Source of the DNA: Rhodanobacter sp. FW104-R8 | Lineage (GTDB): Bacteria > Pseudomonadota > Gammaproteobacteria > Xanthomonadales > Rhodanobacteraceae | Assembly: GCF_001617365.1 (NCBI RefSeq) | Contig: NZ_LVJR01000026.1 | Span: forward strand, 1-64,000 | Direction of reading: 5' to 3' | Length of the DNA: 64,000 nt | Part shown: positions 24,611 to 60,510 of the stretch, piece after piece | How the letters are laid out: every line of letters begins with the position of its first letter | Position numbering within the stretch: the first letter of the stretch is position 1 | The notes under the pieces: model-generated | What the model was told of the DNA's origin: nothing | The model's database searches: none | The model's input: the letters and a program-made list of their open reading frames with translations, nothing else | Position numbers and translations under genes: made by a program

Positions 24611-24960
24611 GCCGCCTCGACGCGCTGCCGCCGTGGGCGGCGATCCTGGTGGCGGCCTTCGTGCTGCTGGGCGCGCTGTTCGCCTTCGTCGGCTCGCTCG
24701 GCCTGCTGCGCCTGGAGAACTTCTACCAGCGCGTGCACGCACCGACCCTGGGCACCACGCTGGGCACGTTCTTCATGCTGGCCGGCTCGATCACCTGCTT
24801 CTCGGTGCTGCACGGCCGGCCGATCTTCTACGAGATCCTGATCGGCGTGTTCCTCACCCTGACCACGCCGATCACCCTGATGCTGCTGGTGCGCGCCGCG
24901 CTGTACCGCGACCGCGAGGAAGGCTCGCAGGACGTGCCGCAGCTGACGCCGAAGGACTGA
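24607..24960 (+). CDS. mnhG: Na+/H+ antiporter subunit G
   Basis: A 117-residue three-helix protein with the MnhG motif LGLLRLENFYQRVHAPT followed by a G/T-rich helix (LGTTLGTFFMLAGS). Last gene of the antiporter operon; the cytoplasmic tail is short and charged. The operon thus contains the complete set A(B)-C-D-E-F-G. Confidence 0.94.
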   Translation: MSRLDALPPWAAILVAAFVLLGALFAFVGSLGLLRLENFYQRVHAPTLGTTLGTFFMLAGSITCFSVLHGRPIFYEILIGVFLTLTTPITLMLLVRAALYRDREEGSQDVPQLTPKD

Positions 24961-25008
24961 CGCGCGGAGCCGCCGCAACCGCAGCGACCCCGTGCGATAC
25001 CGGCGGGA

Positions 25009-25206
25009 TTACAGCGTCCGCTCGAAATCCCGCACCTGGCGCTTGGCCTCGTCGCGCGCGATGCCGTAACGCTCCTGCACCTTGCCGACCAGATACTCGG
25101 TATTGCCCTCGGCCCGGGTCAGGTCGTCGTCGGTCAGGTCGCCCCACTTGGCCTTGATCTTGCCGGTGAGCTGTTTCCAGTTGCCCTGGATGCGGTCGTC
25201 GTTCAT
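25009..25206 (-). CDS. CsbD-family stress protein
   Basis: A 65-residue hydrophilic protein with the CsbD signature [20 protein letters not shown] and a charged C-terminus. CsbD-like proteins are abundant under general stress; their molecular role is unknown. Start at 25206 preceded by GGAGTGACACG. It converges on the antiporter operon. Confidence 0.9.
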
Positions 25207-25447
25207 GTCGTGTCACTCCGTTTGCGAATAGGGATGACAGGCGTGCCGTTGCAACCCGTCGCGGACCACTATCCGCACGGTGGCGTTAGGGCCAGGTGGT
25301 GGCGACGTGCATGGGTGGGGCGGGCGTTCAGGCGGTGGTGCATGGCGGAGGGTTCTAACCCGAGCGATGAACGCCGTTCGTGGCCGATTCCCACCAGTGG
25401 TCACACGGTGATTAGGATTCCGGTGTACGGATCATGATTGATTGGTG

Positions 25448-26773
25448 CTACTGAACGACTTCATCGGTGTGTGCAACCCAAAAGCCCGACGTCAGCGACA
25501 GATCCTCAACCAATCGATCGTTCTGCAGATCGAACGGCACGACCCGAAGGTGTAGATGCTGCGAATAGGTGAACACCGGCAACGGCTGCTGGAACCTGTG
25601 GGTCATGGGGTAGATCAGCAGCATCTGTCCTTCCGCGGGTAGGTAGCGGTGGCCGTAGGCGAAGAGCTGATAGAAGTCGGACTGGCTGAGGCCGTACTTA
25701 TCCTTGGTGCCACCCAAGGCCTGGTCAAGCAGCTTCCACTTGGTATCCAGTACCCAGGTCCGCTCACCCTGCTTGATGAGAAAGTCGGGTTTGAGCTGAA
25801 ACCAGTTCTGGCTGTCGTGTTCGCACAGGTACTGGCTGGACGCCTGCGTCTTGATTGTCGCGTCACGGGGTAGCGTCTTGCGCAGGCAGGCCTCGACATA
25901 GCGTTCGAAGATCTTCTCCATCGGGAACAGCAGGCTGGTGCCATGCCACTCGCCCATGACCGACAGCGGGGTCCGCTCGCCGAGTATCAATGCGCACCAC
26001 GGACGTGCTGGTTGGTAGTGCGTGAGTAGGCGATCGCTGCGCCAGCGGCGGAAGTCCTCGTTGACATTGCGGCTGCGTGGCACCGGCGCGAGAAAGGTCG
26101 CCAGCTCGTGGGCTAGCCGCCAGTTGCCAGCGTCGCGGGTCAGCCGACAGACTCGGTCCAGCGCTAAGCACAGCAGCCGATTCTCGGGTCGGTCGGCATC
26201 AAACACGTCGTGCTCGATCTGGAACAGGTGGTCGCGTCCCGGCGGCTGGCGCAGCTGGCGCGGTACATCCAGCCGGCCGCGCAGAAAACGCTGCTCTTCC
26301 TGCACATGGTGGTAGTCGAAGCGCAGGCCGCGTTTTACGAGCTTGTCCAGCGCTTGCAGGAACTGACGCATCACCCATTCGGTCAGCGGTGCGTCAAAAG
26401 TCTGGATCTCGGTGGGCGACGTTTCACGGGCTGGCACATCCAGGCAACGTGCCAGCATCTTTCGCAGCAGCCGGCGGGCCGCGTCGCGGTTGTCGCCGTG
26501 TTCTGCCGTCTTTGGCAAGATCTCGATGCGCGTTCCGCAAGGCGTCTCGATCACGCCGACATAGCTGTCCAGCCGCAACCAGCGGCGATCATCCACCTGC
26601 ACCAAAGCAGCGCCGGACTTCTGCAGTCGTGCGCTCTCACGGCACAGCCAGTCGAATGCCGATTCCGATACACGGGCGACGTCTAGCGAGCCCTCTGCAA
26701 CGGCTGACGTGGTTAGCCGAGCGTATTCCCTGACGACGACAGGCTGGCGCACCTGTTCAGACCTTGCCGTCAC
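25448..26773 (-). CDS. mcrC: McrC-type restriction nuclease subunit
   Basis: A 441-residue McrC homologue. The C-terminal half has a PD-(D/E)xK nuclease core: Asp330 in LKPDFLI, then Asp343 and Lys345 in WVLDTKW. The N-terminal domain would dock on the McrB AAA+ ring. In McrBC systems this subunit cuts DNA carrying modified cytosines after McrB translocation. The GTG at 26773 overlaps the mcrB end by 17 bases. Last gene of a six-gene defence operon. The gap between it and csbD (25207-25447) contains no gene that I can see. Confidence 0.9.
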   Translation of the reverse strand: MTARSEQVRQPVVVREYARLTTSAVAEGSLDVARVSESAFDWLCRESARLQKSGAALVQVDDRRWLRLDSYVGVIETPCGTRIEILPKTAEHGDNRDAARRLLRKMLARCLDVPARETSPTEIQTFDAPLTEWVMRQFLQALDKLVKRGLRFDYHHVQEEQRFLRGRLDVPRQLRQPPGRDHLFQIEHDVFDADRPENRLLCLALDRVCRLTRDAGNWRLAHELATFLAPVPRSRNVNEDFRRWRSDRLLTHYQPARPWCALILGERTPLSVMGEWHGTSLLFPMEKIFERYVEACLRKTLPRDATIKTQASSQYLCEHDSQNWFQLKPDFLIKQGERTWVLDTKWKLLDQALGGTKDKYGLSQSDFYQLFAYGHRYLPAEGQMLLIYPMTHRFQQPLPVFTYSQHLHLRVVPFDLQNDRLVEDLSLTSGFWVAHTDEVVQ

Positions 26774-29285
26774 CGAGAATGCCCAGGTAAGTCTGGGGCT
26801 TATTGAAGGCTTCTTCGTCCAATCGCCATGCCTTGGCTTCCGGTACGACGTCGCCCGTGTTGCCGAACAACGAGTCCATGGAATAAGTGGCGGGCACGAC
26901 GAAACGGAATCCCTTGTCTTTGCGATGGTCGTTCAGGACCCACGCAATGCGCTGCCAGTCCTCAAAGAAGTATTCCTGAAGGAGCGGGATGATCTGCTTC
27001 AGGAAGATGCTCGACAGCCTCGACAGGTCGTTGCTGTTCTCGAGCGACATGAAATAGGCGTGACCAATCTGGTGGTCACGATCGAGCAAGATCTCGATGC
27101 GGCGGTTCATCGTTTCAAGTACAGCCGACATGTCGATTTCGGCCACTTTGATGCCTGTCAGCTTGTCCGGCCTGGGGGGCATTTCCACAAAGTCGAAGCG
27201 TCGACGAAGCGCTATATCGAGGCCGGCCAGTGAACGGTCAGCCGTATTCATGGTGCCGATCAGGTACACGTTATCCGGCACGCTGAATGGATCTTTCGAG
27301 TAGGGCAGCAAAACCTCGAGCGCCTCGGCAGCACCTGAGCGCTTGGATGGCTCGATCAGCGTGATCAGCTCGCCAAAGATTCGCGAGACATTGCCCCGAT
27401 TGATCTCGTCGATGATCAACACGCGCGGCCGGTCAGGACCGGCCCCCGTGTCTTCGGATTTCAGAAGCGCGCGAAACTTGTCGTAGTTGATCGAGCCCGC
27501 TCGCAGCTCGTATACGGTCATCTGACTGAAGCGGTTTTCCATCAGCGCGCCGTAGGGCAAGGCGGGCTTATAGGCGCGCAGCCAACGTACAGTTCGCGCC
27601 TGGGAGTAGTTGTCACTCTCACGAGCAACCAACTCATAGTCGGCGGTGATCTCGCCAATGGCACGGAACTTCAAGTTGCCTTCGCTCACGACAACGAGGT
27701 CGCCCTTCTTCATCTGGCGGACAAAGGTATTGATGGCCGTGATCGGGTAGTCACCCAGCGAGAGCTGCTCACCGGAGGCGGCAAAGACCTTTTGGATATC
27801 TTCGCGGGATTGGCACTGAGAAAAGTCTGCATTGTTGCCAAAGCCCATCAGGGCAAGGCCTTTCTCCATGCACTCCTCGTAGATGTGTCCCTCGGTGTTG
27901 GAGTCGCCCAGCGACAACTTCCAGATGCGCCGCCCCGACAGCTCCAGTGGAGCGTCGTCGCTCCTGCGTACCAGCCGGGTGCGCGCGGATTCACAGAGCT
28001 CCTTGAAGACGCCGTCTTCCACGTCATAGCGGATCTGCCTGGTATCGGGATCAGAGCTCGCGCTCAAACCCTCGACGAAGTTCTCGTAGCTGAAGCTCTG
28101 GTGGAACGTCACGAACTGCACAAGGCCTTCCTTCGCCAGTTCGTCGTAGCGCTGCTTGAGCTCCTTCCGGCGCTCGTCGCTTTCGTCATCACCCAACCGC
28201 AAGAGAAATGAAGGGTCGAGGATCTCCAGAGCCTTCTCGATGGCCTGGTAGGTCTTCCCCGTCCCCGGCGGTCCGAAAAGGATCTGATTCAAAGGGGGGC
28301 GCTCGGCGGCACAGTCTTTCGCCGAGGTCGCAGTGGAGGTTGTTGCAACCGGTGCCACCGGACCGACTGCATGGGTCGCCACCTTGGAGGACAAAAGGTA
28401 GGTCCCATTACCGTCCTGAGTGACGGTGATGACGTCACCTGCCGCTGCACCAATGTCCTTGAAGTAGCTGCCCAGCCGGTGACGTAGTCGACCGCTGCCG
28501 GGGCTTGAAACGCGTATGTCGGTGTCGAACTCCAGGCCCGAGTCGGTGCGGAAGTGCGCCGTGTCGGCGGCGTCTTCCGGCGTCTTGCCGCCGTACATGG
28601 TCTCCGGGAACGGCGCGGAGATGAGGTTGACCGGGAGATAGCCGTGCTTGACAGCTCCCTCGCTCAGCTTGACGACAAACGGTGTGTTGGCCACCCAGTC
28701 TTTCCAGAGCCGTTCGCTGAACGCGAAGATGCTCTCATCCGCCTGGCGCAATTTCGCGAGGGATCGATAGAGCTCACTTTGAGGTGTCGTGCTATCGGAA
28801 GCCGGCAGGCCGAGAAGGTGCAAAAGAGGCTTGCGCACGTATACGCAGGGGATGCTCGGGTTCTGCAGCGGCTGATAGTGAAAGGCAATTTTCCAGCGAT
28901 AGGCCGCGCCAAGCGGGCTGCTGTCGATCTCGTCCAGGCGACCGTCACGAGCAGCCTTGGCCACGGCTACCACATGGCCACGGATGGCCTGAAATGCCTC
29001 TTCAGGGGAGCTGCCGAATCGGCGGTACCACCCGTAGTGCTCGTCGTAAGCCAGCGCCGTGTCGCCATCGCGCGCCACGGTGTCCTTGCGGGAGAAGATC
29101 GCGAACTTGAAAGCGGAGCCCCCCGCGATGCTGCCGTAATCAATCAGCCGGAATTCCAGCCAATAGATGAAGCAGTCCTTGTCACCCGCCGTGGTGTACT
29201 GGGCCAGGGTCATGGTGCGTAGCCGCTCCAGCGGCCACACCTGAAGAAACTCGCGCCACAACGTGTCGTCCGGGCTGAAGGCCAT
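26757..29285 (-). CDS. mcrB: McrB-type AAA+ GTPase with EVE/PUA-like insert
   Basis: An 842-residue protein. N-terminal ~300 residues are a DNA-recognition region of unclear family, with a basic GSGRLRHRLGSYFKDIG block at 263-279. The AAA+ motor follows: Walker A GPPGTGKT at 338-345, Walker B RVLIIDEIN at 621-629, and sensor GTMNTADRS at 677-685. Walker A and B are unusually far apart because a ~110-residue module (about 450-560, from RRIWKLSLGDSN to KGDLVVVSEG and FRAIGEITADYEL) is inserted; it looks like an EVE/PUA-type modified-base reader. McrB proteins form rings that translocate DNA using GTP. Three bases downstream of hsdS. Confidence 0.9.
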   Translation of the reverse strand: MAFSPDDTLWREFLQVWPLERLRTMTLAQYTTAGDKDCFIYWLEFRLIDYGSIAGGSAFKFAIFSRKDTVARDGDTALAYDEHYGWYRRFGSSPEEAFQAIRGHVVAVAKAARDGRLDEIDSSPLGAAYRWKIAFHYQPLQNPSIPCVYVRKPLLHLLGLPASDSTTPQSELYRSLAKLRQADESIFAFSERLWKDWVANTPFVVKLSEGAVKHGYLPVNLISAPFPETMYGGKTPEDAADTAHFRTDSGLEFDTDIRVSSPGSGRLRHRLGSYFKDIGAAAGDVITVTQDGNGTYLLSSKVATHAVGPVAPVATTSTATSAKDCAAERPPLNQILFGPPGTGKTYQAIEKALEILDPSFLLRLGDDESDERRKELKQRYDELAKEGLVQFVTFHQSFSYENFVEGLSASSDPDTRQIRYDVEDGVFKELCESARTRLVRRSDDAPLELSGRRIWKLSLGDSNTEGHIYEECMEKGLALMGFGNNADFSQCQSREDIQKVFAASGEQLSLGDYPITAINTFVRQMKKGDLVVVSEGNLKFRAIGEITADYELVARESDNYSQARTVRWLRAYKPALPYGALMENRFSQMTVYELRAGSINYDKFRALLKSEDTGAGPDRPRVLIIDEINRGNVSRIFGELITLIEPSKRSGAAEALEVLLPYSKDPFSVPDNVYLIGTMNTADRSLAGLDIALRRRFDFVEMPPRPDKLTGIKVAEIDMSAVLETMNRRIEILLDRDHQIGHAYFMSLENSNDLSRLSSIFLKQIIPLLQEYFFEDWQRIAWVLNDHRKDKGFRFVVPATYSMDSLFGNTGDVVPEAKAWRLDEEAFNKPQTYLGILGDGKV

Positions 29286-29288
29286 GGG

Positions 29289-31574
29289 TCAAAACTCCAT
29301 CGTGGTTTGTTGCATCGTGCGCGGCGGGTGACCGAGGGGGACGACATCGTTCTGGCGCATCCACCCCAGCCATTTGTGCAGCTCGGCGGGCGCAAAGCGC
29401 TGCTTGCTGGCGTGCCAGTGCTCGCGCACCTCTTTGACGATCCAGTCGTCGTCCAGCGTGTGACCATCAAGCAGGGCGTCGTTCCAGGCAGCAAAAAGGG
29501 TGGCGATGATCTCGACCTGTTCGGTCTTCAAGCCACCCATCAAGTCGATCAGTCGATCCATCTCTTCGCGCAAAGGGCCAAGCACGGCGACGCCTTCTTC
29601 GGCCAACGCCTTGAGAGCCTTACCGGGCACGTAGCTCACCTTTTCCTTACCGGAAGGAAGCGTCTCGACGCGGTGGGTGTACCAGTCAGCGGCCTCGGCC
29701 TGCTTCTCCAACGCGTAGATGCCGGTGTCCAGCGGGCCGGCTGCTTGGCGCATGTAGCGGCCACTCAGATTCAGGCCAAGGCGCGACTCGGCCAGATAGA
29801 GGTGCTTCATGTGCGCGGTACGGCCGAAGTTTCGCTTGGAGGCGAGATGCGAGACCACGTAGCCGCTCACGGCAGCGCGTGGATGTTCGATGTTCACCGT
29901 TGGAGCAGGGGCCAGCGCTTCGTGTAGCAGTGCGTCGAGCAGGCGACTGCGGGTGGTTTCGCTGGTGGTGAGGCTGGCTTCCAGCTGGTCACACAGCATC
30001 ATCAGCTCGTCGAGTTTGGCGACGATACGGTGCTGTTCCGCGAGTGGCGGCAGTGGCAGTAAGGCTCGCCGCATATCCGACACGTTTACGTGTCTCGCGC
30101 CAATTCCCTTGTGCCGCTCTAAGAGTCTTTCCAACGATGAGGGCTCCGATATAGCGAGTTGAAAGTACTTTGGAGTCATTAAATCCGAGGGACGAAAAAG
30201 CATGACTCTTTGGCCCATACAGCAGCGCATCCCCTCGGGGACCACCGCCGATTCGCCAACGCTGCCCTCCCTCGCAAAGATGATGTCGCCGGCCTCTGGT
30301 GTAAGGCGGCGGATGCGGTCCCGATAGACTTCTTCGCTTACGAAGCGAAGCTTGGCGTGTAAGACGGTGCCGCCCTTGACGCTGTTGGTGTCAAGACAAG
30401 CGATTCCGTGCGAACTAAACACAGGGGTGGAATGCGGGCAATCCACGATTGCTGCGCATATTTCTTCTGTGGTCGCCCATATCCAGTTGACCGGAAGCTC
30501 ATACGGCGTTGCGCTATCAGCGGTGTGGCGGCGGCTCTCATCTCTATCGTCTGATTTCCGCTTTGCTGATTTGAGTAATTCTTGCTGGACCTGTTCGCAA
30601 TCGTGGCGTTGGGCCACGAGCTTGCCGCGGACGGCGAGGTTGAGGATGGTTTGGCGGAGTTGCTTGATCTGGTCGGGGCGGGTGGTGAGAGCCGGGAGGG
30701 AGTCGAGGGCGAAGCGGGCGTCGGCGCGGAAGGTGTCCGGATCGGGCGCGTTGAGGCGAGTCAGGCTTGCCGCGGCCAGCCGGTCGCGCGTGGCCTCGCG
30801 CTGCGTCCGCGCTGCTTCCAGCTGATCGCACAGCGCCATCAGCTCATCGACCTTAGCGACGATGCGGTGTTGTTCGGCTAGCGGAGGTAGTGGGAACGGC
30901 GAATAGGCAAAGTAGTCGGTCGGCACACGCTTCTGCCCCGCAGTGCCTGTCATCCTGGGGATGCCTGATTCGATGAAGTGCGGACTCTTGAGGAAAATGA
31001 GCACGTAGTCCGGATTGATCAACAACGGCCGAACGATGTGCAACTCCGTTGTTCCACTCCCTAACTTCCCGGACAAATTCCTGAATACGGTGGACTTGCC
31101 GTTCTCGAAGCAGGGCGTGATCTTCGCCAGTCCAACATCACCCTCCGAAAAATGCGTATAACCCTTTTTGATTTCCCGCCATACGCGAACCTCATGGCCA
31201 TTCGGTGCCCCGTACTCAGCGGCAATCAAGTTCATCGGGACAAAGGACGCCTGCATATCATCAGCCGCGTCGTTGCGCGGGCTCAATATCCCGATCTCGG
31301 CGATCTGTGACCACGTCCAATCGGATGGGATCGCAAAAGGCGCTTCTTCAGGTGGCGGGGCCGACTTTGCCTTTCTGACGGTCTCTGTTTGGATAAGCCG
31401 CGTCTTCTCGGCAGTGACCCTCTCCAGCAGTTTGCTGGCGGGCTCGTCGCCAGACTCCTGCGCCACCAACTTTCCCCTTACCGCCAGGTCCAGCACGAAC
31501 CGCCGCAGCTTTGCGATCGCATTCGGCGCGTCTGCGATTCGCGCGTAGTGCGTCAACAAACCTTGGACATTCAT
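29289..31574 (-). CDS. hsdS: type I restriction specificity subunit HsdS with C-terminal extension
   Basis: A 761-residue specificity subunit. Two target-recognition domains are each closed by the same conserved helix, PLPPLAEQHRIVAKVDELM and PLPPLAEQHRIVAKLDELM, the spacer repeat that sets the gap between the two half-sites of the recognition sequence. After residue ~558 an extra ~200-residue domain follows (TVNIEHPRAAVSGYVVSHLA to the end), absent from EcoKI-type HsdS (about 460 residues). Start overlaps the hsdM stop (ATGA). Confidence 0.92.
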   Translation of the reverse strand: MNVQGLLTHYARIADAPNAIAKLRRFVLDLAVRGKLVAQESGDEPASKLLERVTAEKTRLIQTETVRKAKSAPPPEEAPFAIPSDWTWSQIAEIGILSPRNDAADDMQASFVPMNLIAAEYGAPNGHEVRVWREIKKGYTHFSEGDVGLAKITPCFENGKSTVFRNLSGKLGSGTTELHIVRPLLINPDYVLIFLKSPHFIESGIPRMTGTAGQKRVPTDYFAYSPFPLPPLAEQHRIVAKVDELMALCDQLEAARTQREATRDRLAAASLTRLNAPDPDTFRADARFALDSLPALTTRPDQIKQLRQTILNLAVRGKLVAQRHDCEQVQQELLKSAKRKSDDRDESRRHTADSATPYELPVNWIWATTEEICAAIVDCPHSTPVFSSHGIACLDTNSVKGGTVLHAKLRFVSEEVYRDRIRRLTPEAGDIIFAREGSVGESAVVPEGMRCCMGQRVMLFRPSDLMTPKYFQLAISEPSSLERLLERHKGIGARHVNVSDMRRALLPLPPLAEQHRIVAKLDELMMLCDQLEASLTTSETTRSRLLDALLHEALAPAPTVNIEHPRAAVSGYVVSHLASKRNFGRTAHMKHLYLAESRLGLNLSGRYMRQAAGPLDTGIYALEKQAEAADWYTHRVETLPSGKEKVSYVPGKALKALAEEGVAVLGPLREEMDRLIDLMGGLKTEQVEIIATLFAAWNDALLDGHTLDDDWIVKEVREHWHASKQRFAPAELHKWLGWMRQNDVVPLGHPPRTMQQTTMEF

Positions 31575-33028
31575 CGCGCCAGCGCCTCGGCCAGGATCGC
31601 CTTGAGCTGGTCGCGCAACCGCGCCGTCTCGGCTTCGGCGGCGTCGAGGTCAACGAGCAGGGTCTCCGGGTCTCCGTGGTCTTCGGCTTCGGTGTGCGGG
31701 TTCCTGATGTCGAGGTTGTAGCCGCGGGCTTTGATCTCCTTCGCCGTCACTTTCCATGCCTGCGGGGTTTCGACACGGCCTTCGCGGCTGGCGCCGCCCC
31801 ACCAGTCGACGCAATCCTGCAGGTGCTCGATCCTGATTGGCCGGGTCATGGAGTAGGCCTTCTGGCCTTCGGGCACGCGGTGCTCGTAGTACCAGATGTC
31901 CTGCGTGGGGCTGCCCTTTTCGAAGAACAGCAGGTTGGTGCCGATGCTGGCGTAGGGTTTGAACACGCTGTTGGGCAGCCGCACGATGGTGTGCAGGTTG
32001 CACTCTTCCAGCAGGTGCTCCTTGAGGCGGGTCTTTACGCCTTCGCCGAACAGCGAGCCGTCCGGCAGCACGATGGCCGCGCGGCCGCCGGGCTTGAGCA
32101 GGCGGATGAACAGCGCCAGGAACAGGTCGGCGGTTTCCTTGGTGCGGAAATGCGCGGGGAAGTTGGACTCGATGCCGTCCTCTTCCTTGCCGCCGAAGGG
32201 CGGGTTGGCAAGGATGATGTCGACGCGCTCCTTCTGCTCCCAGCTGATGTAGGGCCGGGCCAGGGTGTTGTCGTGCTGCACGAAGCTGGGGTCTTCGATG
32301 CCGTGCAGCAGCATGTTGGTGACGCACAGCATGTGCGGCAGCGGCTTTTTCTCCACCGCGCGCAGGCCCGCTTGCAAGGCCTTTTCGTCGGCCACCGATT
32401 TCACGTAGCGGTCGCGCATGTGGCGGATGGCGCATGTGAGAAAGCCACCCGTGCCGCAGGCCGGATCGAACAGCTTTTCGCCGGGGTGCGGGTCGATGCG
32501 GTCGACCATGAAGGCGGTAACCGCGCGCGGCGTGTAGTACTCGCCGGCGTTGCCCGCGTTCTGCAGATCGTTGAGCAGCTGCTCGTAGACCTCGCCGAAA
32601 TGCTTGCGCTCGGCCAGGTCGTTAAAGTCTACGGTGTTGATCTTGTTGATCACCTGACGCATCAGGTGGCCGGACTTCATGTAGTTGTAAGCATCACCGA
32701 ACAGGCTGCGGATGACGCGGGCGCGGTTGGCCTGCTTGCCTAGCGCGGGCAATTCCTTGAGCGCGGGAAACAGGTCGTCGTTGACGAAGGCCATCAGCGT
32801 GTCGCCGGTGTCACCCTCGGGATCGGCGGCCCAATTACGCCATTGCAGGCGCGGCGGGATCGGCGAGGTGAAGCCGTCCTGCATCAGCTCCAGCTGCTGA
32901 TCCTGATCGTCGATGATCTTGAGGAAGAACATCCAGCACAGCTGGGAGAGGCGCTGGGCATCGCCATCGACGCCGACATCCTGGCGCATGAGGTCCTGGA
33001 TGGATTTAACAGTGGTGCGGGCTGACAT
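31571..33028 (-). CDS. hsdM: type I N6-adenine DNA methyltransferase HsdM
   Basis: A 485-residue methyltransferase with the SAM motif FDPACGTGGFL (187-197) and catalytic NPPF at 275-278, plus the N-terminal helical HsdM domain. It methylates adenine in both strands at the site chosen by HsdS and protects host DNA. Length and motifs are intact. It lies 6 bases after the FRG gene and overlaps hsdS by 4 bases. Confidence 0.95.
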   Translation of the reverse strand: MSARTTVKSIQDLMRQDVGVDGDAQRLSQLCWMFFLKIIDDQDQQLELMQDGFTSPIPPRLQWRNWAADPEGDTGDTLMAFVNDDLFPALKELPALGKQANRARVIRSLFGDAYNYMKSGHLMRQVINKINTVDFNDLAERKHFGEVYEQLLNDLQNAGNAGEYYTPRAVTAFMVDRIDPHPGEKLFDPACGTGGFLTCAIRHMRDRYVKSVADEKALQAGLRAVEKKPLPHMLCVTNMLLHGIEDPSFVQHDNTLARPYISWEQKERVDIILANPPFGGKEEDGIESNFPAHFRTKETADLFLALFIRLLKPGGRAAIVLPDGSLFGEGVKTRLKEHLLEECNLHTIVRLPNSVFKPYASIGTNLLFFEKGSPTQDIWYYEHRVPEGQKAYSMTRPIRIEHLQDCVDWWGGASREGRVETPQAWKVTAKEIKARGYNLDIRNPHTEAEDHGDPETLLVDLDAAEAETARLRDQLKAILAEALAR

Positions 33029-33034
33029 CGATTA

Positions 33035-33880
33035 CTAACCTAAATGCTTGAGGAGCTTGAAGAGCGGATCGCGAGAGTTGGGGTAGAGAGCGGTGCGCGC
33101 GACCTTTGGGAAGTCAGGATCTGCCCAAAAGCAGCGCAGATCGAGACAAAACTTGGCAATCAGCCTCCTACCGAAATCGATTTCGTAGTGCCTGTAGTTC
33201 TGCTTCTGTTCGAAGTCGGGCATCTCCGGGTATTCACCGAGTAAGTAGCCCTCCTGGATATACGGGCGAACAGCGTTGGGCGGGCAGATGCCTGCCAGCT
33301 TGACCGTCTGCAGGCCCGCTTCAGCGCTCGCACTGATTACACCGCTGATATTGGGCACGGCGAGCACATAGACGAACGCTGTTGGCCCTCTTCCCACGGA
33401 TGCAAAAGAGGCAGCAATCCGAATGGATTGCGACACATCGAGGAGTGGTGTGCCGCATTTCTCATAGTGCTGGAGAATCGACCAACGAAGAAGGCGGTGC
33501 CTCGCGACGCGCTGTCTGCCTAACGCCTCGCTGAATTCAAGGGTTTCCATCAAGCGGCGTTCGTAACGTTTGAGCTCCTCGAACCTCGATCTCAACTCCT
33601 CAGGAACCGGGGGGATGAGAGGTTTTTCAGGATCAGAGCGAAGAATGCTCGGCTTCAACGTGGTGTTACGCGCACTGTTCTTGAAGTCGGTGGGTTGTCC
33701 TCGGAAAAAGAGCACGTGCTCCTGGTTATAGAACTGGAGCTCGGCGACTTTCTTCGCTAGCTCAAGATAGGACGAGACTGGATGGCCATCGCCTGCTCGA
33801 ATTTCACTGTTTGTCGCTTGCTTTATCTTCTTGGTGTCGTCAAAGAAGGCGAAGACTTTGGCTTTTCCGACCTCTTCCAT
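33035..33880 (-). CDS. FRG-domain protein inside the restriction operon
   Basis: A 281-residue soluble protein with an FRG domain: the name-giving FFRGQ at about residue 58, then LQHYEKCGTPLLDVSQSIRI and a downstream ASFASVGRGP block. FRG proteins are widespread in defence and phage loci; their biochemical activity is not settled. It is wedged between hsdR (2 bases upstream) and hsdM (6 bases downstream), so it must be cotranscribed with the type I system. GC content is lower than the flanking hsd genes, suggesting a later insertion into the operon. Confidence 0.8.
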   Translation of the reverse strand: MEEVGKAKVFAFFDDTKKIKQATNSEIRAGDGHPVSSYLELAKKVAELQFYNQEHVLFFRGQPTDFKNSARNTTLKPSILRSDPEKPLIPPVPEELRSRFEELKRYERRLMETLEFSEALGRQRVARHRLLRWSILQHYEKCGTPLLDVSQSIRIAASFASVGRGPTAFVYVLAVPNISGVISASAEAGLQTVKLAGICPPNAVRPYIQEGYLLGEYPEMPDFEQKQNYRHYEIDFGRRLIAKFCLDLRCFWADPDFPKVARTALYPNSRDPLFKLLKHLG

Positions 33881-33882
33881 GG

Positions 33883-36339
33883 CTATGCTGTCTCGTCGTA
33901 AAGCGCGTTCTGAAGCTCGTGCACAGCGTGCTCGAAGCCGGCCTTGCCGCCGAAGGGTTTGATGAGCTGAATGGGCGTGCCCATCGCGTTGAACGGAGGG
34001 ATCTCCAGCACCCGCACATTATCCAGATCGGTGACCACGCCTTCATCCCGGTATTTGTCGAGCAGCGCTTCCAACACCGCGCGGGCTTGCGGGCCGTATT
34101 TGGTGAACACGTCGCGCTTGGTCACGTTGTCGGCACGCTCGCGTCGGCTCATCGGTGGCTGGTCGAAGGCGATGTGACAGATCAGGTCGAAGGGATCAAG
34201 ATCCTTGCCCACCTCTTGCTGCAGCGGCTCCAGCAGTAGGCCTTCCTCGGCCAGCTCGGCAATCAGCGACTCCTTGCGTTCGGCTTCGCGCCAGCGGCGC
34301 AGGAAGGCATCCAGACTGATGAAGTGGCGGCGAATGGTGTTGCGGCTGTAGTCGCGCAAGGACTCGGTGACCAGCTTGCCGGATTCATCGAGGTATTCCA
34401 CGCGTTCCAGCACTACGGTGACCGGGCGCTGCCTGACGTAGAACTTGCGGGGACGGTCGTCCTCGACGCTGGGCGGCGGAATCTGTGGCGGTGATTGATC
34501 GACGATGGTCTCTTCGTCGGTGGGCTGCGGCGGTAACGGCGTGCCGTCCTCATCAAGAGGCACATCATCGGGAGGAACCGGCGAGTCGTAGGCCTCGGGC
34601 TGGTAGATTTGCACTGGTTCGCCGTCGAAGTCGGGGTCAGCGAAGTGGTTAGTGGCTTTGCGGAAATCGACCAGAGTGAAGTAGTACTTGTGGGTGTCCT
34701 CGTGGACGCGCGTGCCACGACCGACGATCTGCTTGAACTCGGTCATTGAGCCCACTTCGCGGTCGAGCACGATCAGGCGGCAGGTCTGCGCGTCCACTCC
34801 CGTGGAAAGCAGGCGCGACGTGGTAACGATCACCGGCCAGGTCGACTCGGGGTCGATGAAGTTGCCAAGCTGCGCAGTGCCCTCAGCATCGTCGCCGGTG
34901 ATGCGCATGACATAGCGTGGGTTCACCTTCACGAGGTCGGCGTTTTCGTTGACCAGCGCTTGGCGCATGCGCGCGGCGTGCTCGGTGTCGACACAGAACA
35001 CGATGGTCTTCTGAAAGCGGTCGCCGCTCTGCTTCAGGTAATCGGAAATCCATTTCGCTACGCGCTGGGTGCGCTCATCAATCACCAGAGTGCGGTCGAA
35101 GTCCTTCTCGTTATAGAGCCGGTCGTCAATCGCGTAGCCATGCTTGTCGGTTTCGCCGCGCTGCGGGCGGTAACCCTGCACGTCGACATCCAGATGCACC
35201 TTGATCACCTTGTACGGAGCCAGGAAGCCGTCGCTGATGCCCTGCTTGAGCGAGTAGGTGTACACCGGCTCGCCGAAGTAGTGGATGTTGGAGACGTACT
35301 CGGTCTCCTTGGGCGTGGCGGTGAGGCCGATCTGGGTCGCGTTACCGAAGTACTCCAGAATCTCCCGCCAGGCCGAATCTTCGGCTGCGCTCCCGCGGTG
35401 GCACTCGTCGATCACGATGAGATCGAAGAAGTCCGGCGAGAATTCGCGGAACAGCTTCTGGCGTTCTTCCGGCCCGGTGATCGCCTGGTACAGGCCGAGA
35501 TAGATTTCGTAGGCCGGGTCGATGCGGCGCTTCTTGTCCAGCGCCAGCGTCAGCTCGATCTCGCTGCCGTCCGCGCGCTCGATCGTCTTGCTGGCGGTGC
35601 TGAGCTTGGCCATGGCCGCGCCGAATGGGCGGAAATCGTTGACCATGGTCTGATCGATCAACACGTTGCGGTCGGCCAGGAACAGGATGCGTTTCTTCTG
35701 CCCCGCCTTCCACAGCCGCCAGATGATCTGGAACGCGGTATAGGTCTTGCCAGTGCCGGTGGCCATCACCAGCAGGATTCGGTTCTGCCCCTTGGCGATC
35801 GCCTCGACGGCGGCGTTGATGGCGTTGCGCTGGTAGTAGCGTGGCTCCTTGCCGCTGCCATCCTCGTAGTATGCCTGCAGGACGGTACTTTCCTGTGCGG
35901 GCTGCAGGCCCTTCCAGCTTCGGTAATGGTTCCACAGTTCGTGCGGGCTGGGGAACGCGTCCATCGACAGCGACTGCTCAAGCGGCACCGAAACGCCACT
36001 GCGGTCGTGGAACTGGAAACCTTTGCCGTTGGAGGAGAAAACGTACGGGATATCGAGCGTGGCGGCATAGCCCAGCGCCTGCTGCATGCCGTCGCCGACG
36101 GTATGGGACTGATCCTTGGCTTCGATCAGCGCCAGCGGGAGATGCTTGTAATACAGGACGTAGTCAGCCCGCTTTGCCTTGCCTCGGGTGACCAGCCGGC
36201 CGCGCACGATGATGCGACCTTTGGTAAAGCCCACTTCCTCGCGAATTTGTGTCTGCACGTCCCACCCGGCAGCCACCAGCGCTGGGGTGATGAATTTGGT
36301 GCAGACATCGCGTTCGCTCAGTTTCGCCCCTGCGTCCAC
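33883..36339 (-). CDS. hsdR: type I restriction endonuclease/translocase HsdR
   Basis: An 818-residue motor and nuclease subunit. N-terminal PD-(D/E)xK nuclease: Asp59 in RADYVLYY, Glu73 and Lys75 in LIEAKD. Helicase motor: Walker A MATGTGKT at 192-199, DECH at 311-314, LTATP (motif III), and QIVGRGTRVHEDT (motif VI). It translocates unmodified DNA and cleaves at a distance. All motifs are intact. It is the first gene of the six-gene defence operon; the promoter must lie in 36340-36581, which is AT-richer than the chromosome and shows no gene. Confidence 0.95.
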   Translation of the reverse strand: MDAGAKLSERDVCTKFITPALVAAGWDVQTQIREEVGFTKGRIIVRGRLVTRGKAKRADYVLYYKHLPLALIEAKDQSHTVGDGMQQALGYAATLDIPYVFSSNGKGFQFHDRSGVSVPLEQSLSMDAFPSPHELWNHYRSWKGLQPAQESTVLQAYYEDGSGKEPRYYQRNAINAAVEAIAKGQNRILLVMATGTGKTYTAFQIIWRLWKAGQKKRILFLADRNVLIDQTMVNDFRPFGAAMAKLSTASKTIERADGSEIELTLALDKKRRIDPAYEIYLGLYQAITGPEERQKLFREFSPDFFDLIVIDECHRGSAAEDSAWREILEYFGNATQIGLTATPKETEYVSNIHYFGEPVYTYSLKQGISDGFLAPYKVIKVHLDVDVQGYRPQRGETDKHGYAIDDRLYNEKDFDRTLVIDERTQRVAKWISDYLKQSGDRFQKTIVFCVDTEHAARMRQALVNENADLVKVNPRYVMRITGDDAEGTAQLGNFIDPESTWPVIVTTSRLLSTGVDAQTCRLIVLDREVGSMTEFKQIVGRGTRVHEDTHKYYFTLVDFRKATNHFADPDFDGEPVQIYQPEAYDSPVPPDDVPLDEDGTPLPPQPTDEETIVDQSPPQIPPPSVEDDRPRKFYVRQRPVTVVLERVEYLDESGKLVTESLRDYSRNTIRRHFISLDAFLRRWREAERKESLIAELAEEGLLLEPLQQEVGKDLDPFDLICHIAFDQPPMSRRERADNVTKRDVFTKYGPQARAVLEALLDKYRDEGVVTDLDNVRVLEIPPFNAMGTPIQLIKPFGGKAGFEHAVHELQNALYDETA

Positions 36340-36581
36340 TGCCCTAGGCCCCTGGTTGCCCGTTCGAAGCGCGGGTGTTCCCAGAGCTTAACAAAGGATG
36401 CCTCAAATAATGCCTTCTGAGAGCTTTGGAATTGGTCGGTTGGAAACAGACCCTAGGGAGATCTGTGTGCGATGCCTGTGGAGTTGGCAGCCGTCTAGAG
36501 ATCCCGCATAAGCTAACCAGCTCCTGTGGATGGCAGCGCCAAACTTTTGAAGAACGCATGGCGGGCGCCACGCGCGCAGGA

Positions 36582-36657
36582 TGGTGGGCCCACCAGGACT
36601 CGAACCTGGAACCAAGGGATTATGAGTCCCCTGCTTTAACCATTGAGCTATAGGCCC
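36582..36657 (-). tRNA. tRNA-Ile2 (anticodon CAU), copy 1
   Basis: A 76-base cloverleaf with encoded CCA: acceptor GGGCCTA/TGGGCCC, anticodon loop CTCATAA, T arm CCAGG-TTCGAGT-CCTGG. The CAU anticodon with this body matches the minor isoleucine tRNA whose C34 is converted to lysidine by TilS to read AUA, not initiator Met. Compared with copy 2 (57291-57366) it differs at three positions: 28 and 42 change together and keep the stem paired, while A22 leaves a C13-A22 mismatch in the D stem. Its 3' end faces the defence operon. Confidence 0.93.
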
Positions 36658-36723
36658 GCGAGCGTGGGAGTTTACCGTAGGGCGCGGCGCGCCCACGAGA
36701 TCGGACCTTCGCCGGAACGAAGA

Positions 36724-36743
36724 AGCCCCGCGTCGGCGGGGCT
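36724..36743 (-). terminator. terminator of the lipid operon
   Basis: An 8-bp stem AGCCCCGC/GCGGGGCT with loop GTCG, 27 bases beyond the lipocalin stop. On the minus strand it is followed by TCTTCGTT, a weak T-rich tail. It ends the eight-gene operon starting at 44181. Confidence 0.75.
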
Positions 36744-36770
36744 CCCTGGCGGGCGCGGCGGGTTGTTCGG

Positions 36771-37307
36771 TCATTGCCGGGCTTGCTGCGGCACCTTGCG
36801 GATCTTGTCCATGGGGTAGCCCAGCGCCTGCACCCGGGCCAGCAGCGCGTCGTAGTCGGCCTGCGGAATGGTCGGCGTGCGCGCCATCACCCAGGTGTAG
36901 TCGCGCGCGTCGCGGGCCACGATGACCTGGCTGTAGTCGTCCTTGAGGTAGGCCACGATGTACTGCGCCTTCAGCGGCCAGAACACCTGCACGCCCCACA
37001 CCGCATTGCCGCTGCCGGGCTTGACGATGCCGGTGGAGTGGATGTCCTTCTTCTCGCCGTCGAAGCTGCCTTCGCGGAAATGGAACGAAGTGGCGACGTC
37101 GCCATTGGGCTTGAGCGCGTAGACCTCCAGCGCGTCGTAGGCGTTTTTCTCGAAGCGGGTGGGGATGCTGGCGATCACGTACCAGTTGCCCATGAAGCGG
37201 GGCAGGTCGACGTGGGCCACCGGGGTGATCGGCGGCAGTTCGCTGGCGCAGGCGCTGGCGTTCAGCAGCACGGCGCAGGCCATCAGCAGGGTCTTCGAAA
37301 GTTTCAT
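36771..37307 (-). CDS. blc: Blc-like outer membrane lipocalin
   Basis: A 178-residue bacterial lipocalin. N-terminal signal with a weak lipobox ASAC (Cys20), then the lipocalin motif FMGNWYVIA (GxW) and the later block DYTWVMARTPTIP near the family's third conserved region. Blc binds lysophospholipids and fatty acids in the periplasm. It is the last gene of the ECF-controlled lipid operon, 35 bases after the second Cfa-like gene, consistent with salvage or carriage of modified or damaged lipids during membrane stress. Confidence 0.9.
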   Translation of the reverse strand: MKLSKTLLMACAVLLNASACASELPPITPVAHVDLPRFMGNWYVIASIPTRFEKNAYDALEVYALKPNGDVATSFHFREGSFDGEKKDIHSTGIVKPGSGNAVWGVQVFWPLKAQYIVAYLKDDYSQVIVARDARDYTWVMARTPTIPQADYDALLARVQALGYPMDKIRKVPQQARQ

Positions 37308-57290: not shown

Positions 57291-57366
57291 TGGTGGGCCC
57301 ACCAGGACTCGAACCTGGAACCAAAGGATTATGAGTCCTCTGCTCTAACCATTGAGCTATAGGCCC
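57291..57366 (-). tRNA. tRNA-Ile2 (anticodon CAU), copy 2
   Basis: A 76-base cloverleaf with encoded CCA and CTCATAA anticodon loop. All stems pair fully, including C13-G22, so this looks like the standard copy. It is 73/76 identical to copy 1 at 36582-36657, in the same orientation, and shares the upstream TTTACCGTAG. An IS3 relic lies beyond its 3' end. Confidence 0.93.
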
Positions 57367-57483
57367 GCGCAAGGGCGGAAGTTTACCGTAGCGCGCCAGT
57401 CGTGCACGAAGACGACATGCCGCAAGTCGTGTGGTGACGTGATGGCTCGGGGCGTAGGCTGGTCATCCCCCCTAGGTCGGAGC

Positions 57484-57861
57484 ATGCGCATGAACACCGA
57501 GGCGATCGCGAAACGGTTGGTCGAGTTGTGCCGTGAAGGCAAATACGAGGACGCGCAGCGTGAGCTGTATGCGGAGGATGCGGTGAGCATCGAGCCGGAT
57601 GGCCTGCCGCCGGGGGCGCTGGGCAACGTGCGCGGGCTGGCGGCGATCTACGAGAAGGGGCGGCAGTTCAGCGCGATGATCGAGGCGGTGCACGGTGGCA
57701 GCGTGAGCGAGCCGGTGGTCGCGGAGAACTGGTTCAGCATCGCGCTGGCGATGGACGTGACGATGAAGGGCCGGGGCCGGACGAACATGAGCGAGATCTG
57801 CGTGTATCGCGTGCACGGCGGCAAGATCGTGCGCGAGCAGTTCTTCTACGACGTCGGCTGA
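57484..57861 (+). CDS. SnoaL-like/NTF2-fold protein
   Basis: A 125-residue protein with the alpha+beta cone fold of SnoaL-like/NTF2 proteins: helix AKRLVELCREGKYEDAQREL, then YAEDAVSIEPDG, and the terminal strands MSEICVYRVHGGKIVREQFF. Small stand-alone members bind or isomerise small hydrophobic ligands; the ligand here is unknown. Start could be 57484 or 57490 (two Mets). Single gene, followed by a strong terminator. Confidence 0.82.
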   Translation: MRMNTEAIAKRLVELCREGKYEDAQRELYAEDAVSIEPDGLPPGALGNVRGLAAIYEKGRQFSAMIEAVHGGSVSEPVVAENWFSIALAMDVTMKGRGRTNMSEICVYRVHGGKIVREQFFYDVG

Positions 57862-57878
57862 GTGCGTACCCATGAAAA

Positions 57879-57910
57879 CGAAGAAGCCCCGCATCGGCGG
57901 GGCTTCTTCG
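57879..57910. terminator. bidirectional terminator between the SnoaL-like gene and rpoD
   Basis: A perfect 14-bp stem CGAAGAAGCCCCGC/GCGGGGCTTCTTCG with loop ATCG, lying 17 bases after one stop and 23 bases after the other. T-rich on both strands at the stem edge, so usable in both directions. Confidence 0.9.
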
Positions 57911-57933
57911 ATGTTGCGATGACGCAGCAGTGA

Positions 57934-59811
<1,878 letters not shown>

Positions 59812-59978
59812 TCACCGACCGCCGCAGGGTTCAAGAACCGGACATTATAGCGATGTGCTGCTTTTTTGACCAGTTTTCAAGTGGAAAAAGGTCGCGGGGG
59901 GACACGCAAAAATCGCGCCAGATCGCGGTGTTGCCATGTCTCGCCGGCCTCGGCTTGGCGAAACACGCCACCCGCCGT

Positions 59979-60419
59979 TCAGCCGGTGTCGAGCCAGAAG
60001 GTCACCGGGCCGTCGTTCACCAGCTGGACCACCATATGGGCGCCGAAGCGCCCGGTTTCCACCCCGGGGTACGCGGCGCGGGCCAGCTCCAGCAGCCGTT
60101 CGAACCAGCGCCGGCCGTGTTCGGGCGGTGCCGCGCTGGTGAAGCTGGGGCGCATGCCGGAACGGGTGTCGGCGGCGAGGGTGAACTGGCTGACCAGCAG
60201 CAGGCCGCCGCCGGTGTCGGCGAGCGAGCGGTTCATCTTGCCGTGGTCGTCGGCGAACACGCGGTAGCCGAGCAGGCGTTCCAGCATGCGTTTCGCCTGT
60301 GCCTCGCCGTCGTCGGGCTGCACCGCCACCAGGGCCAGCAGGCCGGGGCCGATCGCGCCGACCGTTTCGCCGCCGACGCCGACGCTGGCAGACAGGACAC
60401 GCTGGATCAGGGCAATCAT
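59979..60419 (-). CDS. dtd: D-aminoacyl-tRNA deacylase
   Basis: A 146-residue Dtd. The catalytic and substrate motifs are intact: [14 protein letters not shown] (SQxT) and the cross-subunit Gly-Pro motif in [10 protein letters not shown]. It removes D-amino acids (and Gly mischarged on tRNA-Ala) from tRNA. Dimeric, cytoplasmic. It is 167 bases upstream of rpoD on the same strand; the gap 59812-59978 shows no gene. Confidence 0.96.
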
Positions 60420-60423
60420 CTGT

Positions 60424-60451
60424 TCGGGATTCGGGATACGGGACTCGGGAT
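60424..60451. repeat. short heptanucleotide tandem repeat
   Basis: Four 7-base units: TCGGGAT, TCGGGAT, ACGGGAC, TCGGGAT, in the 91-bp gap between dtd and the divergent acyltransferase gene. It overlies the likely promoters of both genes. Confidence 0.6.
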
Positions 60452-60510
60452 TCGCAAGAGCATAAGCGATGGACGGCTGGCGGCGCGCGGCCCGCTACAC
60501 TGGCGCCCCT

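What the first reader, a model, noticed from the sequence alone, without database searches (positions are those of the whole stretch)
25448..36339. Six-gene composite defence operon: type I restriction, FRG protein and McrBC
hsdR-FRG-hsdM-hsdS-mcrB-mcrC lie on one strand with gaps of 2, 6, -4, 3 and -17 bases. A modification-dependent nuclease (McrBC) and a modification-protected one (type I) sharing a single transcript is unusual: together they would attack both unmodified and heavily modified phage DNA. All catalytic motifs look intact.
Basis: partly seen in the sequence, partly recalled or inferred. Interest (0 to 1): 0.75.

Follow-up and report, generated by a model that had tools for sequence, protein, structure and literature searches.

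The report
Restriction island with ART-fold stowaway gene
This is a compact, mobile bacterial anti-virus island that joins two kinds of DNA-cutting defence in the way E. coli's textbook restriction region does, plus one unusual extra gene that looks like an NAD-using toxin slotted precisely between two restriction genes.

Summary
Six intact genes (hsdR-frg-hsdM-hsdS-mcrB-mcrC) lie on one strand at 25448-36339 with gaps 2, 6, -4, 3 and -17, in a low-GC island next to tRNA-Met(CAU). One congener (G156) has all six genes beside a different tRNA-Met copy. The claim that type I plus McrBC together is unusual does not hold. E. coli K-12 has hsdR-hsdM-hsdS-(symE)-mcrB-mcrC on one strand, and a published census says the E. 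coli-like McrBC branch is frequently associated with type I systems, usually unidirectional. In this family, 7 of 11 genomes with a McrC match have an HsdM-like match upstream on the same strand. "Modification-dependent" is not shown: McrB's N-terminus has no Pfam match. What stands out is FRG. It is present or absent at exactly the hsdR|hsdM junction within one genus, recurs there in Dyella, a Paracoccus plasmid and a viral-collection contig, and is under purifying selection. The 50 listed structural alignments of its model are all ADP-ribosyltransferases (modest scores; Foldseek alone not significant). A few other type IB loci carry HNH, Mrr-like or AbiE-like genes in that slot. My reading: a modular restriction island with an optional, probably NAD-using effector. 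Coupling to restriction (PrrC-like) is inferred.

The parts
33883..36339 (-). hsdR, EcoAI/FtnUII-type (type IB) restriction and translocation subunit, 818 aa, GTG start
   Evidence: NF046051 1160 bits; PADLOC REase_I 1131 bits; motifs
33035..33880 (-). frg, FRG-domain protein, 281 aa; predicted ADP-ribosyltransferase-like fold; optional cargo in the hsdR|hsdM junction
   Evidence: PF08867 32.7 bits; PADLOC candidate PDC-S15; model and fold comparison; presence/absence
33701..33703 (-). codon of FRG Arg60, invariant in 38 of 38 aligned FRG proteins
   Evidence: catalytic role inferred
31571..33028 (-). hsdM, N6-adenine methyltransferase subunit, 485 aa
   Evidence: N6_Mtase 242.6 bits, HsdM_N 43.6 bits
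29289..31574 (-). hsdS, specificity subunit, 761 aa
   Evidence: Methylase_S 58.5 bits; PADLOC Specificity_I PDLC03196 matches 11-759 of 761
30064..30608 (-). second target-recognition region of hsdS, replaced in G156
   Evidence: identity drops to 0.45-0.51 at 30100-30599 with higher identity on both sides; naming it the second recognition region is my reading
29289..29897 (-). C-terminal extension of HsdS (about residues 560-761), unassigned
   Evidence: no Pfam match at E<=1; the same extension is in Dyella (by eye) and in G432 (46% over 512-761), which has no FRG in the junction
26757..29285 (-). mcrB, McrB-like AAA+ GTPase, 842 aa, NxxD signature (NTAD) present
28863..29255 (-). McrB N-terminal region (residues 11-141) similar to PADLOC PD-T4-1; no DUF3578/ADAM by Pfam
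27486..27938 (-). insert between Walker A and Walker B of McrB (about residues 450-600), similar to PADLOC PDC-S02
   Evidence: inserts of likely specificity domains described in PMC11090510 (passages)
25448..26773 (-). mcrC, McrC nuclease subunit, 441 aa
   Evidence: PF10117 385.8 bits
36582..36657 (-). tRNA-Met(CAU) by ARAGORN, immediately upstream of hsdR; island site
   Evidence: G156 and G153 also have the operon 3' of a tRNA-Met
25289..36581 (.). island: about 60% GC against about 70% in flanks; absent from the close relative G149

Best explanation
A mobile, modular immigration-control-type defence island beside tRNA-Met. Core: a type IB (EcoAI/FtnUII) restriction-modification system that methylates adenines in host DNA at a site set by HsdS and cuts unmethylated DNA, plus a downstream McrBC that probably cuts DNA carrying marks or motifs read by McrB's N-terminal and inserted domains. 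Accessory: an FRG protein with a predicted ADP-ribosyltransferase-like fold, inserted exactly at the hsdR|hsdM junction. The most likely mechanism is layered defence: type I acts first, McrBC catches DNA that evades it, and FRG is a NAD+-using effector (NADase or ADP-ribosyltransferase) that damages or arrests the infected cell when restriction is engaged or inhibited, comparable in position and logic to PrrC in hsd loci. Shown: gene content, order, intact motifs, the block at two different tRNA-Met sites, presence/absence of FRG, purifying selection. Supported by prediction: ART-like fold. Inferred only: NAD use, toxicity, trigger, coupling to HsdRMS, McrB target, single transcript.
For: Order and gaps. 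Same six genes in G156 beside another tRNA-Met copy: L036 16500-20000 matches window 57878-61370. G153 has five genes without frg at the same site as G156. frg is swapped in or out cleanly, together with the last HsdR residues. hsdR-frg-hsdM recurs in Dyella kyungheensis, a Paracoccus plasmid and an IMG/VR contig. FRG dN/dS 0.11 against G156 (NG86). Model pLDDT 77; the 50 entries listed by VIA-align are all ADP-ribosyltransferase-superfamily proteins, best Z 6.2. FRG is described as an ART-superfamily member and possible NADase immune effector in PMC9503650 (passages). PrrC precedent in PMC2610378 (passages). Type I plus McrBC precedent.
Against: No activity, toxicity or transcript data. Foldseek gave no match with E<=0.001; its list (best E 1.3) mixes ART toxins with unrelated folds such as ZipA, and no VIA-align Z reaches 8. 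The position of the ART glutamate is not clear: residue 210 is Glu in the seven close relatives but is not among the invariant or nearly invariant columns of the wider FRG set, where Gln209 is invariant. Two of seven close FRG relatives have no hsd match in the stretches held (6.0 and 11.1 kb), so FRG can exist alone. Most type IB junctions examined are empty. NG86 dS differs along the operon (mcrB 0.17, hsdM 0.26, hsdR 0.52, frg 1.0), so the parts do not share one history.
Confidence: 0.55

Rival explanations
1. Defence-island neighbourhood without functional coupling: HsdRMS, McrBC and FRG are independent defences that share a site and perhaps a transcript; FRG is a hitch-hiking defence gene placed where insertion does least harm.
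For: Different dS along the operon; FRG and McrBC are each lost or gained separately (G153 and G093 lack FRG; Dyella keeps FRG with only a 52-residue McrB match); two close FRG relatives have no hsd match nearby; other unrelated genes occupy the same slot in a few loci.
Against: Five of seven close FRG relatives sit in precisely this junction (window and G156 of one genus, Dyella, Paracoccus, an IMG/VR contig), while 0 of 80 canonical FRG loci had a match to the window's hsd or mcr proteins. The five are not independent.
Confidence: 0.3
2. FRG regulates the type I enzyme (for example modifies HsdR or HsdM, or limits self-restriction) and is not a toxic effector.
For: It lies between hsdR and hsdM, and hsdR C-terminal residues change with its presence (ALYDETA with frg, ALYASxTQQESA without).
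Against: G153 and G093 have nearly the same HsdM (96.5-96.9% identical) and HsdR without it, so by inference the enzyme works alone. The published view of FRG is as an immune effector (PMC9503650 passages).
Confidence: 0.12
3. McrBC here is not modification-dependent but reads an unmodified motif or another feature, as LlaJI does, so the two nucleases do not split unmodified and modified DNA.
For: No DUF3578/ADAM or other Pfam match in residues 1-330 at E<=1. LlaJI precedent (PMC12707154 passages).
Against: LlaJI carries its own two methyltransferases (same passages); the only one here is HsdM. McrBC of this kind also occurs with no hsd match in a 19-kb stretch (G298).
Confidence: 0.2
4. Several transcription units as may be the case in E. 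coli K-12, rather than one operon.
For: K-12 has the same order but with gaps of 200 (hsdR-hsdM), 227 and 161 bases around symE.
Against: Here all gaps are at most 6 bases or overlaps, and similarly small in G156 (2, 3, -4, 3, -17); no terminator-like site in the gaps.
Confidence: 0.15

Closest known systems
E. coli K-12 immigration control region (hsdR-hsdM-hsdS-symE-mcrB-mcrC; mrr opposite)
   Same: Order and strand of hsdRMS and mcrBC; type I and type IV restriction together in a variable island (PMC12707154 passages); EcoAI-type hsdRMS-symE beside yjiX-yjiA in an E. coli record filed as a plasmid
   Different: K-12 has symE between hsdS and mcrB and larger gaps, and no FRG; its type I system is type IA (recalled); McrB of K-12 has DUF3578/ADAM (PMC11090510 passages), this one has no Pfam-recognised N-terminus
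Pseudoalteromonas sp. HL-AS2 plasmid NZ_CP133572: EcoAI-type hsdRMS plus McrBC-like pair
   Same: hsdR-hsdM-hsdS followed after 2 bases by an AAA_5 ATPase and after 2 more by a DUF2357 nuclease, same strand
   Different: Different McrBC subtype; junction gap of 117 bases without a gene; no FRG
PrrC/EcoprrI and RloC (accessory nuclease in hsd loci)
   Same: Accessory effector-like gene inside a type I locus; guard logic proposed here by analogy (PMC2610378 passages)
   Different: PrrC is an anticodon nuclease with ABC ATPase motifs linked to type IC; FRG shows neither and sits in a type IB locus
FRG-domain proteins / PADLOC PDC-S15 candidates
   Same: PF08867 and PDC-S15 matches; invariant R60, G61, Q137, H138, Y139, T144, D148, F159, Q209
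   Different: The 80 canonical FRG loci examined on viral contigs had no match to the window's hsd or mcr proteins
BREX plus BrxU (pEFER)
   Same: Modification-blocked system and type IV enzyme in one island giving complementary protection (PMC8565348 passages)
   Different: BREX instead of type I; BrxU (GmrSD family) instead of McrBC; experimentally shown there, not here

Membership tests
Type IB (EcoAI/FtnUII) restriction-modification | EcoAI/FtnUII-family HsdR | tested here: met
   NF046051 1160 bits, cut-off 550; nuclease and helicase motifs present
Type IB (EcoAI/FtnUII) restriction-modification | HsdM N6-adenine methyltransferase and HsdS beside it | tested here: met
Type IB (EcoAI/FtnUII) restriction-modification | ATP-dependent restriction and m6A methylation activity | not testable with these tools
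   needs assays or methylome
McrBC | McrB-type AAA+ GTPase with NxxD signature beside McrC with PD-(D/E)xK | tested here: met
   PF10117 385.8 bits; GPPGTGKT, IIDEINRG, NTADRS, LDTKWK; solved McrB GTPases matched with E down to 1.9e-60
E. coli-type McrB (with DUF3578/ADAM reader) | DUF3578/ADAM at the N-terminus | tested here: not met
   no Pfam family at E<=1 for residues 1-330; NCBIfam PRK11331 117.9 bits against cut-off 637
Type IV (modification-dependent) restriction | cuts modified, not unmodified, DNA | not testable with these tools
   inferred from McrBC homology only
CoCoNuT branch of McrBC | NxxD reduced to NxD | tested here: not met
   NTAD is present; definition from PMC11090510 passages
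FRG domain (PF08867) | match over the curated cut-off | tested here: met
   32.7 bits, cut-off 25
ADP-ribosyltransferase superfamily | ART fold | tested here: inconclusive
   model pLDDT 77; 50 of 50 listed VIA-align entries are ART proteins but best Z 6.2 and best Foldseek E 1.3; published assignment in PMC9503650 (passages)
ADP-ribosyltransferase superfamily | NAD+-dependent activity | not testable with these tools
   needs biochemistry
PrrC/RloC anticodon nucleases | ABC ATPase domain with an ACNase triad | tested here: not met
   at E<=0.001 only FRG found by Pfam and only PDC-S15 models by PADLOC; the triad itself was not searched
Single operon | one transcript over six genes | not testable with these tools
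   gaps and the consensus scan are compatible

The most novel reading that the evidence does not exclude
The FRG protein is a NAD+-consuming or ADP-ribosylating abortive-infection effector held silent by, and sensing the state of, the type IB restriction complex whose operon it is embedded in: a new guard-type coupling of restriction and cell suicide parallel to PrrC. The hsdR|hsdM junction would then be a general slot in which type IB systems exchange such effectors (FRG, HNH, Mrr-like, AbiE-like).
Probability: 0.27. Interest if true: 0.75.

Novelty: new variant of a known kind. Interest (0 to 1): 0.42.

Why it matters
The McrBC plus type I pairing is textbook, so that part changes nothing. 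The FRG gene matters because FRG domains are thought to be NAD-using immune effectors (PMC9503650 passages), and the passages I read name no trigger for them. A natural on/off series in one genus (with FRG: window and G156; without: G153) gives a clean test of what FRG adds to a restriction system. The hsdR|hsdM junction is also a practical place to look for new effectors coupled to restriction.

Tried and rejected
Rejected: that the gene pairing is unusual; that the array is an assembly accident (G156 has it); that it belongs to the CoCoNuT branch (NxxD intact).

Led nowhere: the first FRG model with 4 sequences had pLDDT 41 and was not used. A profile of 7 FRG proteins found no solved relative (two chance-level rows, best E 0.22). 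Foldseek alone gave no significant match. A viral-contig scan with this McrB (two N-terminal peptides) confirmed no relative. The genome-contig scan with the FRG alignment (two peptides, so narrow) confirmed only Dyella. FRG in phage records by tblastn at E<=1e-5: none.

Papers: 'FRG domain' with 'phage defense' is in 0 papers; with 'type I restriction' in 2; with 'restriction' in 7. Passages of four of the seven describe no FRG gene in an hsd operon; the other three were seen only as listings. Papers were also searched. The 2020 paper that reported FRG as an immune effector (recalled as Burroughs and Aravind, J Bacteriol) is not held, so I cannot say that the FRG-hsd linkage is unpublished.

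No repeat of the tRNA end at the far island edge was seen by eye, nor among the 20 listed of 41 direct-repeat families of 18 bases or more. None of the six genes is an integrase. How the block moves is open.

Limits of counts: the 80 canonical FRG loci are the 80 listed of 99 stretches, selected by a motif that the window protein lacks; the stretches are 1.3 to 15 kb long. The 5 of 7 close FRG relatives include three from one bacterial family. Of 39 HsdM loci on viral contigs, 5 lacked hsdR on the stretch, one (L153) has an interrupted hsdR frame, and two (L154, L158) show only the last 70 residues of hsdR. Of 33 plasmid records with HsdM I opened 9, one of them because it held FRG.
Full report
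What is there. Family assignments are firm for HsdR (EcoAI/FtnUII, type IB), HsdM, HsdS and McrC, and adequate for McrB and FRG. Catalytic motifs are intact. GC is about 60% across the block and about 70% outside. A tRNA-Met(CAU) ends at 36582, 242 bases upstream of hsdR. No sigma-70-like site was found in 24900-36900, and no terminator-like site lies in the gaps; with 2.6 and 10.2 expected in shuffles this says little. The genome has one FRG-domain match.

Other genomes. In 233 family genomes, FRG at 66% identity or more is in 3 (own, G156, G052; a fourth hit, G221, is weak), and McrC at 89% or more is in 4 (own, G153, G156, G093). G156 (same genus) has all six genes in the same order; identities hsdR 94, frg 79, hsdM 97, hsdS 73, mcrB 95, mcrC 95%. 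G153 (same genus) and G093 (other genus) have hsdR-hsdM-hsdS-mcrB-mcrC without frg, hsdR-hsdM gap 3. Dyella has hsdR-frg-hsdM-hsdS followed by a 52-residue match to the start of McrB and no mcrC match.

Mobility. The close relative G149 lacks the block: window 25288 and 36633 are adjacent there, and only the 5' part (about 25 bases) of the tRNA gene remains. In G152 window 24988 and 36784 are about 20 bases apart, with no room for the tRNA. In G156 and G153 the block sits 3' of a tRNA-Met whose other flank matches window 57878-61370 and 57291-60672, that is, the window's second tRNA-Met locus. So the block occupies two different tRNA-Met sites in one genus. In G093 and G157 a tRNA-Arg(CCG) lies beside the corresponding loci. 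In 250-base bins, nucleotide identity between window and G156 is mostly 0.92-0.98 over mcrBC (one bin 0.84), falls to about 0.5 in the second target-recognition region of hsdS (30100-30599), and is about 0.75 in the 5' part of frg. NG86 dS is 0.17-0.18 for mcrBC, 0.26 hsdM, 0.52 hsdR, 1.0 frg, with dN/dS 0.06-0.15 except hsdS 0.34. The genes are under purifying selection and the block is a mosaic.

Type I with McrBC is ordinary. E. coli K-12 has hsdR-hsdM-hsdS-symE-mcrB-mcrC on one strand. PMC11090510 (passages read) states that the McrBC branch with the E. coli system is characterised by frequent association with type I RM, usually unidirectional and with the potential of a single operon. Of the 11 family genomes with a McrC match at E<=1e-60, 7 have an HsdM-like match upstream on the same strand within the fetched stretch: own, G153, G156 and G093 with the type IB HsdM, and G157, G095 and G025 with matches of only 29, 28 and 25%, so of another type. 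G036 (only a weak hsdR-like match) and G231 do not; G226 and G230 lie on contigs of 7.3 and 3.8 kb and cannot tell. A Pseudoalteromonas plasmid has EcoAI-type hsdRMS followed after 2 bases by an AAA_5 ATPase and then a DUF2357 nuclease. Against this, none of the 39 type IB HsdM loci on viral contigs had this McrBC beside it (one weak match to the McrB insert, L134), so the pairing is recurrent, not universal. Complementary restriction is experimentally known for BREX plus BrxU (PMC8565348, passages).

McrB specificity is open. Residues 1-330 match no Pfam family at E<=1; residues 11-141 resemble PADLOC PD-T4-1, and a stretch between Walker A and B resembles PDC-S02. Inserts of likely specificity domains in McrB GTPases are described in PMC11090510 (passages). 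LlaJI shows that McrBC relatives can act on unmodified sites (PMC12707154, passages).

The FRG gene. FRG is in PF08867. With frg, HsdR ends ALYDETA (window, G156) or ALYEEIA (Dyella); without it, ALYASxTQQESA (G153, G093); frg starts and ends within a few bases of its neighbours. The arrangement hsdR-frg-hsdM recurs in Paracoccus seriniphilus plasmid NZ_CP067132 (FRG 45%) and in IMG/VR contig 2891415116 (FRG 50%, next to what I read as a tyrosine integrase), neither with an McrBC match in the stretch held. So FRG goes with type IB rather than with McrBC. Two more distant relatives, G677 (39%) and IMG/VR 3300037045 (34%), have no hsd match in 6.0 and 11.1 kb; that makes 5 of 7 in the junction. 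Control: 0 of 80 canonical FRG loci on viral contigs have a match to the window's hsd or mcr proteins. In a phylum sample of 398 genomes only 2 (own and G677) have this FRG at E<=1e-10.

The junction as a slot. In 39 type IB HsdM loci on viral contigs, 34 show hsdR; the junction holds a gene in 3 (FRG in the contig above; an Mrr_cat protein; an HNH protein), one hsdR frame is interrupted, and 30 have gaps of -4 to 123 bases, two of these with only the end of hsdR. In the 8 further chromosomal loci of the order sample, one (G432) holds a winged-helix plus AbiEii-like pair (both below Pfam cut-off) and 7 are empty. Of 9 plasmid loci opened, Paracoccus has FRG (opened for that reason), Pseudomonas aeruginosa pPAG5 has an HNH gene directly before hsdM (no hsdR in the incomplete gene table), and 7 have none. 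The slot is usually empty but is filled several times by effector-like genes.

Fold. With 38 sequences the FRG model has mean pLDDT 77 and pTM 0.78. Foldseek alone is not significant (best E 1.3, an Rhs toxin; ZipA and other unrelated folds follow). VIA-align of 662 candidate chains gives 78 with Z>=2, 25 with Z>=5 and none with Z>=8; the 50 entries listed are all ADP-ribosyltransferase-superfamily proteins (cholera and pertussis enzymatic subunits, Tpt1, Rhs toxins TreTu/TreX, Scabin, Arr, CARDS, PARPs; naming them ART is my knowledge). Candidates were preselected by Foldseek, and many rows are one protein in several entries. One FRG relative also has a sub-threshold Pfam hit to NarE (E 0.013), an ADP-ribosyltransferase (recalled). 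Across 38 FRG proteins R60, G61, Q137, H138, Y139, T144, D148, F159 and Q209 are invariant. The cholera A1 alignment begins at model residue 54 against chain residue 1, which would put R60 at its Arg7 (catalytic, recalled) if ungapped; this was not checked residue by residue. PMC9503650 (passages) calls Frg an ART-superfamily domain, a potential antiviral effector and possibly a NADase.

Mechanism. Most likely: layered defence, with type I against unmethylated DNA, McrBC against DNA that evades it, and FRG as a NAD-using effector that arrests the cell. The step that FRG is silenced by or senses the type I complex is by analogy with PrrC, which is silenced by its linked type IC enzyme and switched on by a phage anti-restriction peptide (PMC2610378, passages). 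I give the layered-island reading 0.55 overall and the guard version 0.27.

Verdict. Observation confirmed; the interpretation of rarity not supported; the FRG insertion is the interesting part and makes this a new variant of a known kind.

Noticed in passing
window 36582-36657 and homologues in G150, G151, G155, G157, G160, G164, G166, G168, G169, G175, G176, G179, G181, G190, G191: In these congeners a tRNA(CAU) copy matches in two pieces about 250-300 bp apart, split just after the anticodon, which looks like a group I intron (recalled parallel: Azoarcus tRNA-Ile). The window copy has none.
   Followed up: no
L038 about 14774 (G149) against window 25288/36633: G149 lacks the island and keeps only about the first 25 bases of the tRNA-Met gene at this site.
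   Followed up: partly
L037 14199-14357 (Dyella): A match to the first 52 residues of mcrB after hsdS, suggesting a lost McrBC.
   Followed up: partly
window 29289-29897: HsdS has an unassigned C-terminal extension of about 200 residues, shared with Dyella and G432; it has no Pfam match at E<=1.
   Followed up: partly
L111 7086-8443 (G432): A winged-helix-like protein and an AbiEii-like nucleotidyltransferase (both sub-threshold in Pfam) fill the hsdR|hsdM junction of another type IB locus.
   Followed up: partly
L107 14295-15374 (Paracoccus plasmid) and L119 13181-14140: A NucS-domain gene stands between hsdM and hsdS in Paracoccus; a 319-aa protein that looks NucS-like to me (not scanned) and a metallo-beta-lactamase-like protein (not scanned) follow hsdS in the IMG/VR contig.
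   Followed up: no
L075 14373-14449 and L077 6157-6233: tRNA-Arg(CCG) beside the hsd/mcrBC loci of G093 and G157, a second tRNA type linked to such islands.
   Followed up: no
L283 6-980 and L281 1-876: A WYL-domain gene and a viperin-family gene near the Pseudoalteromonas hsdRMS plus McrBC-like array.
   Followed up: no
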